From positions 1 to 29,472 of the IMG/VR virus record IMGVR_UViG_3300005613_000312: DNA of 29,472 bases, one strand, 5' to 3'. Position 1 is the first letter of the stretch, and each line of letters starts with the position of its first letter. The stretch comes from a virus. The notes beneath the pieces were generated by a model. It saw only the letters and a program-made list of their open reading frames with translations, did not search any database and was not told the origin of the DNA. The position numbers and the translations under genes are program-made. Shown here piece by piece: positions 10,255 through 14,192 of this stretch.

Positions 10255-11313
10255 ATGCCTTCATATTTCAGACAAGTTCCAGATTTTGAATATGTCAGTA
10301 GAGATCCAAATCAAAGACAGATCTCTGAGTATGCGACTGTAAAAAATTTATTCCGTCGCGGAAAACTCCGTGAGGATATTTTTGGAAATCTTTCATACTT
10401 CACAAAGTACAAAATTATAGGCGATGAAAGACCAGATAATGTAGCATATAAAGTCTATAATGATGAGACTCTTGATTGGGTAATTCTTCTTTCTAATAAT
10501 ATTCTTAACATTCAAACCGAATGGCCATTGCCACAAACGATCTTTGATAAGGTAATGTTAGAAAAGTATGGTTCTTATAATGAACTTTATAATGATATCC
10601 ATCATTATGAAACACAAGAAGTTAGAGATAGCACTGGAAACTTAATTCTACCAGAAGGAATCATAATGCCAAATGAATGGAAATCTGGTAATGGATTCGT
10701 AAATGCATTTAAAGGTACAGGGATTATATCTAGATTAGTTTATTTTGAAGATACTCAAGAAGTAGAAATAACGATAGATTTAAATTTGGGAGAAGATATA
10801 ATTGATTTGAAACAATATCTTGAAATTGATATCACCAATGCTGTAGATGAATCACTCAATGGAAAATTTCAAATAAAAAATGAAGTAGAAAGAGAATCTG
10901 TTGATATTGATGGAGATGGAGAAAATGATTTATTTAGAATCAAATTTAGAATTGATATAGTAGGAAATGCTCCAACATCTGAAAATGGAGTTGAATTAGA
11001 AGTAACTGGAAATGAAACTATTGAATACTATTCAAAAGATTTTCTATCCACAACAAATCAATATTATTATGATTATTATGATGTAAACTTAGAAAAAGAA
11101 ATTAGATTGGCAGCATCTAATATTTTAACACCGATTACAAATTATGAATATGAAAGTCAAATAGAAGATGCAAAAAGAAATATATTTGTACTCAAACCAA
11201 GATATTTAAATATTGTATTTAATGATCTAGAAGAAATTATGAAATATAAGAAAGGTTCTACTCAGTATGTAAGTAGAACCTTAAAAAGAGGAGATAATAT
11301 TAGACTTTATTAA
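10255..11313 (+). CDS. 53: gp53 baseplate wedge protein with an inserted beta domain
   Basis: This is a 352-residue protein. The N-terminus (YFTKYKIIGDERPDNVAYKVYND then LDWVILLSNNI) is the LysM-like module of T4 gp53, which clamps neighbouring baseplate wedges together. T4 gp53 is about 196 residues, so this is far longer. The conserved C-terminus resumes with NYEYESQIEDAKRNIFVLKPRYL. Between them residues about 150-260 form a beta-rich insertion containing DIDGDGEND (217-225), a dockerin/EF-hand-like calcium loop. The gene is the last of the plus-strand operon and ends converging with the gp32 paralogue, overlapping it by 4 bases. Confidence 0.88.
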   Translation: MPSYFRQVPDFEYVSRDPNQRQISEYATVKNLFRRGKLREDIFGNLSYFTKYKIIGDERPDNVAYKVYNDETLDWVILLSNNILNIQTEWPLPQTIFDKVMLEKYGSYNELYNDIHHYETQEVRDSTGNLILPEGIIMPNEWKSGNGFVNAFKGTGIISRLVYFEDTQEVEITIDLNLGEDIIDLKQYLEIDITNAVDESLNGKFQIKNEVERESVDIDGDGENDLFRIKFRIDIVGNAPTSENGVELEVTGNETIEYYSKDFLSTTNQYYYDYYDVNLEKEIRLAASNILTPITNYEYESQIEDAKRNIFVLKPRYLNIVFNDLEEIMKYKKGSTQYVSRTLKRGDNIRLY

Positions 11314-11966
11314 TTTCCAAGAACAAAATTTAATTGTTCTTTTAATTCATCATAAGACTTAAACCGATCAAGCGATTTCATTTCGGATAATGAATATGCC
11401 CGACTCATAATGTCAGCATCAATTTCTAATGGCTCAACTGGACCAAAATTGGATCTATCATATTCATGGCATCCATCAATATCCTCAATATAATAATTAA
11501 AGTTGCATCCTTCTTGTAGATCAAAGATATTTACTTCCATATCTTTTTCGATTTCTGGATACATTTGATTTACAATCTTTCGAAAAACAGTTCTACCATA
11601 CTTCAGAATAAAAACTTTTCCATTATTTTTTGGATTTGTAGAATCATCAATGACATAGATATTGCTATAATATGCAATCTTCATTTTCTGTTTTTTGACA
11701 ACATCTTTAGCTATTTTTCCATTAGTACTCAATAATTTTTGATTATATTCTGAAACTGGATCCTTTTTCTTAATATTCACCAAAGAATTTTCTTCGTATA
11801 AAATTCCAGTGGGACCATAAAAAGAGTAATAAAACAGACTAATCCATGGAAAATCATCTCCATCAATGGGAGGAAGAAAACGAATAGTTGATCGAAATTT
11901 TCCGTCACTGTCCAAAATTGGATTATAAAATCTCTCTTGTTTTGGTTTAATGTTTTTAATTTTCAT
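11310..11966 (-). CDS. gp32-like ssDNA-binding protein paralogue lacking zinc ligands and acidic tail
   Basis: This 218-residue protein is clearly homologous to gp32, encoded immediately upstream. Shared landmarks are RSTIRFLPP (gp32 AVIRFLPAPP), AYYSNIYVIDD (SYYANVYIVSN), GKVFILKYGRTVF (GQVKIFRFGSKVF), IFDLQEGCNF (PFDLWNGANF) and the C-terminal LNFVLG (LNYVLG). The zinc loop has lost all ligands: where gp32 has His71, Cys84, Cys92 and Cys95, this protein has no His or Cys in the region around 47-75. The acidic C-terminal tail used by gp32 to contact replication proteins is absent, and the basic N-terminus is short. It probably keeps an OB fold. Its start lies about 10 bases after a terminator stem, so expression needs read-through or low-level initiation. 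Confidence 0.8.
   Translation of the reverse strand: MKIKNIKPKQERFYNPILDSDGKFRSTIRFLPPIDGDDFPWISLFYYSFYGPTGILYEENSLVNIKKKDPVSEYNQKLLSTNGKIAKDVVKKQKMKIAYYSNIYVIDDSTNPKNNGKVFILKYGRTVFRKIVNQMYPEIEKDMEVNIFDLQEGCNFNYYIEDIDGCHEYDRSNFGPVEPLEIDADIMSRAYSLSEMKSLDRFKSYDELKEQLNFVLGN
11319..11343 (+). terminator. Plus-strand hairpin terminator after gp53
   Basis: The stem AAGAACAA / TTGTTCTT is 8 perfect pairs with a 7-base AT loop, followed by a short TTAATT run. It starts 6 bases after the gp53 stop and lies inside the 3' end of the opposing gp32 paralogue. The weak T tract lowers confidence. Confidence 0.5.
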
Positions 11967-11969
11967 AAG

Positions 11970-11995
11970 AAAAATGGGGAGCTAATAAACTCCCC
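11970..11995 (-). terminator. Rho-independent terminator after gp32
   Basis: On the minus strand GGGGAG and CTCCCC pair across an 8-base loop and are followed by ATTTTTC. It begins 8 bases after the gp32 stop and ends just before the ATG of the paralogue at 11966, so it should make gp32 mRNA much more abundant than paralogue mRNA. Confidence 0.85.
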
Positions 11996-12003
11996 AAAAA
12001 GAA

Positions 12004-12924
12004 TTACCCTGCTAGCTTACTAAAGTATGCCATTGCATCATCTTCGTCTTCGTCAGTTTCTTCTACCGTAGAAGACTTACTGCGAGAATAAGACTCTTCA
12101 AGCTCTTTCATGATGTCACTCTCTGATGATTGTGCCAAAGGCTCAAGCTCTTCTTCTTGTTCCCGTACAGACTGAGAAATTGGCTTAGAACCAAGAACAT
12201 AATTTAGGCGCTTCTCAAGTTCTTCTGGCGACTTAAACTTATCTCGGGAAATAAGTTCTTGTAGTGAATGTTCGGTCTTCCAAAGTGCTTCTAGTTCATC
12301 ATCATCCCCATCAAGAAGTGCAGATGGTGGTTCAAATACGCTATCATCATAATTTGGATAGCCAGCAACTTTTTTGACGCGAAGACGGAAATTAGCCCCA
12401 TTCCATAGATCAAATGGATCAATTACTGGATCATCTTCAAATTCTGGTTTCATTGATGCTTTAATTTTATCAAATACTTTAGAACCAAATCGGAAAATTT
12501 TAACTTGACCTTCTAATGAAGGATCAGCAGGATTACTTACAATGTAAACATTAGCGTAGTAGCTGAGTCTACGCTTACGAGTACGAGCAATTTCTTTATC
12601 GGAATCTACTCCAGAGTTCCAGAGTTCTGAATTAGCTCGACATACAGCACACTCTTCACCAAGAGTCGTAAGACAATTTTCAATAAACCAACGACCATTG
12701 ACCTGGAAGCCATGATTGTATAGTTTTACGAAAGGTAGATCCTCATTTGGAGGAGCTGGTAGAAAACGAATTACAGCACGACCATTGCCTGCCTTATCAG
12801 TTTCTAGTTTAAAAAGATTTGGGTTATCACTAGAATTATTGCCACCCATTTTCTCTGCTTCCTTGATAAGCTTTTCAGTTAGGCTACCAAGGGAAGACTG
12901 TTTTTTGAGATCTTTAAAATTCAT
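12004..12924 (-). CDS. 32: gp32 single-stranded DNA-binding protein
   Basis: This is a 306-residue helix-destabilising protein coating ssDNA at the phage replisome and during recombination. T4 gp32 is 301 residues. The zinc-binding subdomain is intact: His71, Cys84, Cys92 and Cys95 match the spacing of T4 His64, Cys77, Cys87 and Cys90 apart from a two-residue contraction. A basic N-terminus (KDLKKQSSLGSLTEKL) fits the cooperativity domain, and the C-terminus from about 255 is strongly acidic (ETDEDEDD), the protein-interaction tail. It has its own early promoter at 12984 and a leader with pseudoknot potential. No Shine-Dalgarno is visible before the ATG, and the leader near the start is unstructured AT-rich sequence, as expected for gp32 self-repression. 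Confidence 0.96.
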   Translation of the reverse strand: MNFKDLKKQSSLGSLTEKLIKEAEKMGGNNSSDNPNLFKLETDKAGNGRAVIRFLPAPPNEDLPFVKLYNHGFQVNGRWFIENCLTTLGEECAVCRANSELWNSGVDSDKEIARTRKRRLSYYANVYIVSNPADPSLEGQVKIFRFGSKVFDKIKASMKPEFEDDPVIDPFDLWNGANFRLRVKKVAGYPNYDDSVFEPPSALLDGDDDELEALWKTEHSLQELISRDKFKSPEELEKRLNYVLGSKPISQSVREQEEELEPLAQSSESDIMKELEESYSRSKSSTVEETDEDEDDAMAYFSKLAG

Positions 12925-12983: not shown

Positions 12984-13012
12984 ATCATAGCATAGAGTCA
13001 TTCGTTTTGCAA
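12984..13012 (-). promoter_or_regulatory. Early promoter of gp32 (TTGCAA-N17-TATGAT)
   Basis: On the minus strand -10 TATGAT lies at 12989-12984 with an extended TGC before it. The spacer is 17 bases and -35 TTGCAA is at 13012-13007. The -35 lies within the 3' end of the DUF1825 gene. The predicted start near 12977 places the pseudoknot at the 5' end of the transcript. Confidence 0.65.
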
Positions 13013-13330
13013 CTCTCTTTTGGTGTCTTCTATCAAATTAAACATATTTCGAAAAACATCTTCTATTTGCACTTCTCCAGGAAGTCCTATTAATTTTGTT
13101 GCATCATCTAATCTATTTTTCATTTCAATTGCATCTGGGTTATCAGATAAACTCAACCTAGCATATAAAATTTTTTGTCTTTCTAACAATTTTTCTAGTA
13201 ATTTTATATGCTCTAATTTTTCATTTTTTGACATTAGATGAAAAGACAAAATATTACAAGAAATTTTTTCTTGTAATATTTCAATTTCTTTTAACTCTTC
13301 TTTGACTATTTCCGATCCGAAAAATGTCAC
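12998..13330 (-). CDS. DUF1825 family protein
   Basis: This is a 110-residue protein. The start FFGSEIVKEELKEIEILQEKI and the later HIKLLEKLLERQKILYARLSLSD match the DUF1825 family, small helical proteins almost confined to cyanobacteria and their phages. Its function is unknown. The start codon is GTG, overlapping the TGA of gp59 (GTGA), so the two are coupled. The sequence is mostly helix with coiled-coil character and no cysteines form a motif. The family's restriction supports a cyanobacterial host for this phage. Confidence 0.8.
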   Translation of the reverse strand: MTFFGSEIVKEELKEIEILQEKISCNILSFHLMSKNEKLEHIKLLEKLLERQKILYARLSLSDNPDAIEMKNRLDDATKLIGLPGEVQIEDVFRNMFNLIEDTKRELQNE

Positions 13331-13923
13331 AATAATACTTTTCTTATGATGTTCTTGTATTTATCTAAATCAATCACCAAAAATGGAGAATATTTTTTAA
13401 TTTTCATAGAGATTAATTCCCATATTGGATCTAATAACTGTTTATCAAATTTTTCTCTATAGTGAATCATTTTATCTAATATTACCATTGTTTCTAATGA
13501 TAGATTACCAGAAAAATATTCTTTTACTAATTTTGGATGTTTATTGTTTTTTAAATTTATAAATTCTAGGAAATTTTTTCCCTCGAATACATTCCTCAAA
13601 TCTGACTCAAAAACATAAGACAACGATTGTCTTTTTTTCTTCCACTCTAGATAAATTTCATTTCCATTTTTTATGATATCACCAATCCAGAGAGAAGATG
13701 GATCTGTAGAAGAAATGAAATTAGAGACAAAAAAATCTATTATTTCATCGTCTTTTTTTTGTCTTGATAATCTTTCGAAAAATAATCTATCTTTTCTTTT
13801 GTGAAAAGACTGAATCGATGCTTTTACATTTCCATTATATTTGTGATAATCATATTTGTCACTAGAAAAATGGTTTTTTAATGCAATATATGTTTTGTAT
13901 GTTTCATGTGGTGTCACTTTCAT
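13327..13923 (-). CDS. 59: gp59 loader of the replicative helicase
   Basis: This is a 198-residue protein. T4 gp59 (217 residues) loads gp41 helicase on gp32-coated forks and regulates primase-polymerase coupling. Matching features are the early YKTYIALKNHF, YDYHKYNGNV, KRKDRLFFERLSR, the WIGDI motif at about 80, FESDLRNVF and the middle SLETMVILDKM. The protein is rich in Lys, Asn and Tyr, as in T4. It overlaps gp33 upstream (TAATG) and DUF1825 downstream (GTGA), and gp32, its partner, is the next gene after that. Confidence 0.92.
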   Translation of the reverse strand: MKVTPHETYKTYIALKNHFSSDKYDYHKYNGNVKASIQSFHKRKDRLFFERLSRQKKDDEIIDFFVSNFISSTDPSSLWIGDIIKNGNEIYLEWKKKRQSLSYVFESDLRNVFEGKNFLEFINLKNNKHPKLVKEYFSGNLSLETMVILDKMIHYREKFDKQLLDPIWELISMKIKKYSPFLVIDLDKYKNIIRKVLL

Positions 13924-14192
13924 TACAGAGGAAGTTTAGCTTTTGAACTTTGCTTTAAAAAATTTAATTCTATTGCATCACATTTTAACTTTTCTTTAAG
14001 TGGTTTTGTTATTAATTTTGAGATAGATTCTACCTCAATACCATTTATTTCGCAATATTGAACTATTGCACTAATATAATTATGTTCTGGGTCGCTTTGT
14101 ACTAAACTTTCAATCTCTTGTGCAAATTTATCTTGACATAAAAACTTTTTTTGAAATTCTTTTTTTAGTTCATCGGAGTGATTTGTATTCAT
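13923..14192 (-). CDS. 33: gp33 late transcription co-activator
   Basis: This is an 89-residue protein. The segment ISAIVQYCEINGIEVESISKLI then LKEKLKCDAIELNFL matches T4 gp33 (112 residues; LEATTAFLEENSIPETQFAKFI then IIEKIQSEAIDENLL). gp33 binds the RNA polymerase beta flap and links it to the sliding clamp, allowing activated transcription at TATAAATA late promoters. Several such octamers are present in this window. The gene overlaps the upstream exonuclease by 23 bases and its TAA shares a base with the gp59 ATG. Confidence 0.88.
   Translation of the reverse strand: MNTNHSDELKKEFQKKFLCQDKFAQEIESLVQSDPEHNYISAIVQYCEINGIEVESISKLITKPLKEKLKCDAIELNFLKQSSKAKLPL

What the first reader, a model, noticed from the sequence alone, without database searches (positions are those of the whole stretch)
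11310..12924. Second gp32-like protein without zinc ligands or acidic tail, next to gp32
The 218-residue paralogue keeps the OB-fold landmarks and the LNFVLG end but has no equivalent of His71, Cys84, Cys92 or Cys95 and lacks the interaction tail. It may bind ssDNA without recruiting replication proteins, modulate gp32 cooperativity, act in recombination, or bind RNA. The tandem layout shows duplication followed by loss of function-defining parts.
Basis: partly seen in the sequence, partly recalled or inferred. Interest (0 to 1): 0.7.

Follow-up and report, generated by a model that had tools for sequence, protein, structure and literature searches.

The report
Second, stripped-down phage DNA-coating protein
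A few uncultured relatives of cyanobacterial viruses carry, beside their normal DNA-coating protein, a second conserved copy cut down to its bare core and probably taken from a different virus lineage, so its missing zinc site is most simply inherited from ordinary zinc-free relatives and is not damage after duplication.

Summary
The gene is real: 11310-11966(-), 218 aa, directly behind gp32 (12004-12924). It is a bare gp32 core: Pfam gp32, confident AlphaFold model, VIA-align Z 22-23 to solved gp32 cores. It lacks the zinc ligands and acidic tail, as reported, and also the N-terminal cooperativity (LAST) domain. It is intact in the window and 7 IMG/VR contigs (dN/dS 0.07-0.11). None of the 2282 cultured-phage records it matches shows a second gp32-like place. 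"Duplication, then loss of zinc" is not supported: single-copy gp32s of most cyanophages sampled lack the same cysteines and share its KDPVSEYN loop; trees put it outside the resident gp32's close lineage (AU p 0.0009; 0.016 without the loop). Descent from a deep ancestor of the whole zinc-type clade is not excluded (p 0.28). It sits in a variable slot between gp32 and gp53, behind a conserved terminator-like hairpin. All six distinct copies lost residues that ordinary gp32s keep (W72, R111, aromatics at 137 and 183), while K110, K112, Y115 and Y186 remain. Best guess: a non-cooperative, tail-less accessory core that interrupts or tunes gp32 filaments; rival: a decoy for defence systems that sense gp32.

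The parts
11310..11966 (-). Second gp32-like gene, 218 aa, bare core (stop included)
11975..11996 (-). Terminator-like hairpin, followed by a T-run, between gp32 and the second gene; 8 pairs formed in 5 of 5 distinct sequences aligned
12004..12924 (-). Resident gp32 (zinc-type, 306 aa, with LAST-type N-domain and acidic C-tail)
10255..11313 (+). gp53 baseplate wedge, convergent; its stop overlaps the stop of the second gp32
12998..13330 (-). DUF1825 protein, upstream neighbour of gp32
13327..13923 (-). gp59 helicase loader
13923..14192 (-). late-transcription coactivator (gp33-like)

Best explanation
The 218-aa protein is a gp32 core domain on its own, equivalent to T4 gp32 residues ~22-241. 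It most likely entered this cyanophage clade from a zinc-free cyanophage gp32 lineage, into a cargo slot between gp32 and gp53. Shown: homology, predicted fold, absence of N-domain, tail and zinc ligands, purifying selection, position behind a conserved terminator-like hairpin, not a member of the resident gp32's close lineage. Inferred: it is made at a lower level than gp32 (behind the hairpin); it cannot donate an N-domain to a neighbour and so binds non-cooperatively and more weakly (lost W72, R111, aromatics 137 and 183; kept K110, K112, Y115, Y186); if it accepts the N-domain of a resident gp32 through its kept C-terminal helix, it would interrupt or cap gp32 filaments without recruiting the replisome, making ssDNA easier to hand over to recombination or repair proteins.
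For: Fold: AF2 pLDDT 88.9, pTM 0.84; 2a1k TM 0.83; VIA-align Z 23.2 to 2a1k, 22.5 to 1gpc, model 6-216 on chain 22-239. Missing domains. Selection. Origin: 48% identity to Sf-CH8 gp32 against 33% to the neighbour gp32; AU p 0.0009, 0.016, 0.004 against a clade with the resident's close lineage; outside the loop, of 31 columns where the two gp32 types differ by majority, it follows the zinc-free type in 18, the zinc type in 3, neither in 10. Empty site in relatives; 13 of 14 relatives' records searched have one gp32. Precedent: T4 core *III and a 1-227 truncate bind ssDNA together, in that paper's reading through the N-domain of one and residues 228-253 of the other (PMC12893549, passages).
Against: No binding data. 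Changes are not enriched at ssDNA contacts (2 of 8 conserved contact columns lost against 15 of 66 others, Fisher p 1), so they may reflect a general shift of function. The acceptor region 228-253 is only partly present (the protein ends at ~241), and positions 230 and 234 are mostly changed. Interaction with the resident gp32 was not tested. Sisterhood with the whole zinc-type clade is not rejected (p 0.28 and 0.285); the exact donor is unresolved (stem 1.9-2.0 changes per site).
Confidence: 0.4

Rival explanations
1. Anti-defence decoy: bacterial systems such as AbpAB, Hna, Retron-Eco8, Nhi and Hachiman respond to phage ssDNA-binding proteins; a gp32-like core with weakened DNA binding and no replisome tail could occupy the sensor without triggering it.
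For: AbpAB is triggered by T4 gp32 and not by a C87A C90A mutant, and the authors infer unknown inhibitors in RB32 and RB69 (PMC10732053, passages); Hna is activated by a phage SSB, and escape variants exist (PMC13381803, abstract). The gene sits in a cargo slot, is patchy among near relatives, and lost trough residues.
Against: No sensor was sought in hosts; no interaction data; those systems were studied in other bacteria.
Confidence: 0.2
2. RNA-binding or translational regulator derived from gp32 (T4 gp32 represses its own mRNA).
For: gp32 uses the same domain for RNA and ssDNA in the view of PMC535899 (passages); an altered trough could mean an altered ligand.
Against: No RNA target was found (none was systematically sought); the conserved hairpin before the gene reads as a terminator.
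Confidence: 0.12
3. Tandem duplication of the resident gp32 followed by loss of zinc ligands and tail.
For: Tandem position; sisterhood to the whole zinc-type clade not rejected.
Against: AU tests against a clade with the close lineage; shared KDPVSEYN loop with zinc-free gp32s; sites without it in relatives with 85-90% identical gp32.
Confidence: 0.1
4. Interference with a competing phage: a tail-less, N-domain-less core from a zinc-free lineage poisons the gp32 filaments of co-infecting zinc-free cyanophages.
For: The likely donor type is the competitors' gp32 type.
Against: The very long stem (about 2 changes per site) argues against preserved mixed filaments; no data.
Confidence: 0.05
5. 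A decaying relic of gp32.
For: Truncated at both ends, many conserved residues changed (17 of 74 class-conserved columns).
Against: Open in 8 of 8 contigs, dN/dS 0.07-0.11 with dS up to 1.4.
Confidence: 0.03

Closest known systems
gp32 of zinc-free cyanophages (e.g. Synechococcus phages Sf-CH8, S-T4)
   Same: Homologous core, KDPVSEYN loop, no Cys ligands; 45-48% identity
   Different: They keep the LAST-type N-domain, acidic C-tail, W72, R111 and aromatics at 137 and 183, and are single-copy
T4/RB69 gp32 core (PDB 1gpc, 2a1k; classical fragment *III)
   Same: Same fold and nearly the same boundaries
   Different: The T4 core holds zinc and is a proteolytic fragment, not a natural gene product; 26-30% identity in the structure alignments
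Resident gp32 of this phage (B23-like, zinc-type)
   Same: PF08804, neighbour gene
   Different: 33% identity, zinc ligands, all three domains, separate lineage

Membership tests
gp32 (PF08804) | Pfam profile above gathering score | tested here: met
   84.4 bits against 26.8
gp32 (PF08804) | gp32 OB-fold core | tested here: met
   AF2 pLDDT 88.9; Z 23.2 to 2a1k, 22.5 to 1gpc
T4-type gp32 SSB | Zinc ligands His, Cys3 | tested here: not met
   Y, S, D, S in 6 of 6 copies; but 38 of 75 ordinary gp32 rows lack the full set too
T4-type gp32 SSB | N-terminal LAST domain for cooperativity | tested here: not met
   absent; no room in the upstream open frame
T4-type gp32 SSB | Acidic C-terminal interaction tail | tested here: not met
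   ends at VLG plus 1-3 residues; stop overlaps gp53 stop
T4-type gp32 SSB | ssDNA trough residues | tested here: inconclusive
   K110, K112, R/K138, Y115, F/W144, Y186 kept; W72, R111, aromatics 137 and 183 lost in 6 of 6
T4-type gp32 SSB | ssDNA binding activity | not testable with these tools
   needs purified protein

The most novel reading that the evidence does not exclude
A gp32 core from a foreign cyanophage lineage has been domesticated as a phage shield or weapon: a DNA-binding-weakened, tail-less SSB mimic that jams host sensors of gp32-coated ssDNA, or jams the gp32 filaments of competing phages.
Probability: 0.2. Interest if true: 0.8.

Novelty: new variant of a known kind. Interest (0 to 1): 0.5.

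Why it matters
A conserved natural version of the classical gp32 core fragment, beside a full-length gp32, would be a ready-made test of what cooperativity and the tail do in a real infection. The side result, that most cyanophage gp32s sampled lack the zinc cysteines of the T4 textbook protein, bears on how general the zinc role is. Since gp32 triggers several defence systems, a gp32 mimic in a cargo slot is a sensible anti-defence candidate.

Tried and rejected
Rejected: relic gene; recent in-lineage duplicate; frameshift fusion from gp32 (upstream open frame too short). Enrichment of losses at ssDNA contacts was tested and not found. A T4-type late promoter core (ATAAATA; motif recalled) was sought: 17 in the window against 17.07 by chance, none between 11310 and 12924. 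Covariation of the hairpin is suggestive only: one double change, 93 of 500 shuffles as good. Genome-contig scan: 114 pattern matches, no relative. Three viral-contig scans for the second copy returned the same 7 contigs; one search also returned 10 contigs with ordinary gp32. Paper searches for zinc loss, gp32 duplication or a second SSB listed nothing on point by title and abstract. Papers opened: PMC11551737, PMC12893549, PMC10732053, PMC535899 and PMC3012046 as passages, PMC13381803 as outline with abstract; the rest as search listings only. The one cultured record with two gp32-like places (2419 places in 2418 records) was not identified.

Rows dropped: of 83 distinct gp32-like proteins L081 and L095 (split frames) were left out, leaving 81; before that, frames cut by a contig's end on their 3' side or under 150 aa were skipped. 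For some searches five long-branch and 20 near-duplicate rows were left out (56 rows); for five and 25 (51 rows). The zinc count reads RB7 as zinc-type although the alignment slips there.

Full report
WHAT IS THERE. The window is a 29,472-base virus record. On the minus strand lie a late-transcription coactivator, gp59, DUF1825, gp32 and then a second gp32-like gene; gp53 and gp48 face them. The second gene (218 aa) and gp32 (306 aa) share 33% identity, E 4e-38, and only these two places in the record match gp32. The resident gp32's best cultured match is Kyanoviridae phage B23, 59.7%. A 159,556-base relative with the same pair encodes psbA, so this is most likely a cyanophage (inference).

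ANATOMY. Against gp32 the second protein lacks the first ~24 residues (the LAST/cooperativity domain), all zinc ligands, and everything after the core's last helix. The model is confident (pLDDT 88.9, pTM 0.84) and matches only gp32 cores strongly: Z 23.2, 22.5, 18.2, 18.1, then 4.6 for the next entry. The zinc-loop region is modelled as ordered without the ligands (blocks of 91-95). Using T4 contact positions listed in PMC11551737 (passages), mapped through the RB7 row, W72, R111 and F183 are lost in 6 of 6 copies, and so is the aromatic at 137 (not on that list). Among the 75 ordinary rows position 72 is aromatic in 75, 111 is Arg in 75, 137 is aromatic in 75 and 183 in 70. K110, K112, R/K138, Y115, F/W144 and Y186 are kept. 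Of 15 conserved basic columns 8 lost the charge in nearly all copies; of 17 conserved acidic ones 5 did; of 20 aromatic ones 7 did (my count from the lists). These losses are not enriched at the contact columns.

CONSERVATION AND DISTRIBUTION. Seven IMG/VR contigs carry the pair in the same order, giving with the window 6 distinct second proteins. dN/dS is 0.07-0.11 for the second gene and 0.04-0.07 for gp32. In the phages collection 2282 records match the second protein, each at one place; 2418 records match gp32, at 2419 places. Of 14 relatives' records searched, 13 have one PF08804 gene and one has two; most of these records are fragments. Close relatives with 85-90% identical gp32 have an empty site (L035, L041) or another gene there (L039, a 2OG-Fe(II) oxygenase). 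On the gp32 tree, pair or single changes twice among 12 rows, so the gene was lost or gained more than once, if the tree is right.

ORIGIN. In 75 ordinary gp32 rows, 37 have the zinc ligands (36 by column, plus RB7) and 38 do not. Of 22 gp32s fetched from cultured phages 19 lack the full set and 3 have it (B23, S-PM2, RB7); these were picked for similarity to one of the two proteins and are not a random sample. The second protein shares the zinc-free loop (KDPVSEYN) and is nearest by identity to Sf-CH8 (48%). The full tree places it with Sf-CH8 and S-T4 at weak support (92/70 and 91/90), stem 2.01. A clade with the resident gp32's close lineage is rejected: p 0.0009, 0.016 with the loop columns and long rows removed, 0.004 in a thinned quick tree. 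A clade with the zinc-type group (leaving out the zinc-type rows S-PM2 and L076) is not rejected (p 0.28 and 0.285). So a recent tandem duplication is out, the donor is unresolved, and zinc loss after duplication is unnecessary. In 68 of 103 loci both gp32 and gp53 are visible, and the gap between them is short or holds varied genes, a cargo slot. Endonuclease-type genes lie nearby in relatives: TnpB-like in L003, NUMOD3 with a sub-threshold GIY-YIG match in L004. PMC535899 (passage) tells that T4 SegG mediates its own transfer together with gene 32, a possible route.

EXPRESSION. Between gp32 and the second ATG lies GGGGAGTY-loop-RRCTCCCC-ATTTT, with 8 pairs formed in 5 of 5 distinct sequences; in several empty-site relatives a different hairpin stands there. 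I see no clear Shine-Dalgarno between hairpin and ATG (my reading). I infer low-level expression by read-through; no phage late promoter core was found there, and the sigma-70-like matches are near the chance level.

MECHANISM. The natural analogue is T4 core fragment *III, which is non-cooperative alone but binds together with an N-domain-bearing partner (PMC12893549, passages). A filament breaker or tuner is my first choice (0.4). A decoy for gp32-sensing defence is second (0.2). Neither has direct evidence here.

Noticed in passing
gp32 rows: Most cyanophage gp32s sampled, and those of DLP6, Melnitz-2 and ACP17, lack the full set of T4 zinc ligands; the trait changes at least 3 times on the tree, with S-PM2 zinc-type next to zinc-free S-RSM4.
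   Followed up: partly
L081:1188-2418 and L095:3464-5660: gp32 is split into two frames (gaps of about 260 and 1100 bases), perhaps an intron or insertion.
   Followed up: no
relative's record behind L004 (G001:C1:104201-105744): psbA matches in two pieces about 720 bases apart that continue each other, perhaps an intron.
   Followed up: no
L003:2510-3685: TnpB-like (OrfB_IS605, Cas12f1-like TNB) gene between the exonuclease and gp33-like genes.
   Followed up: partly
L054, L063, L064 downstream of gp32: Leucine-rich-repeat-variant proteins of different lengths in the gp32-gp53 slot.
   Followed up: no
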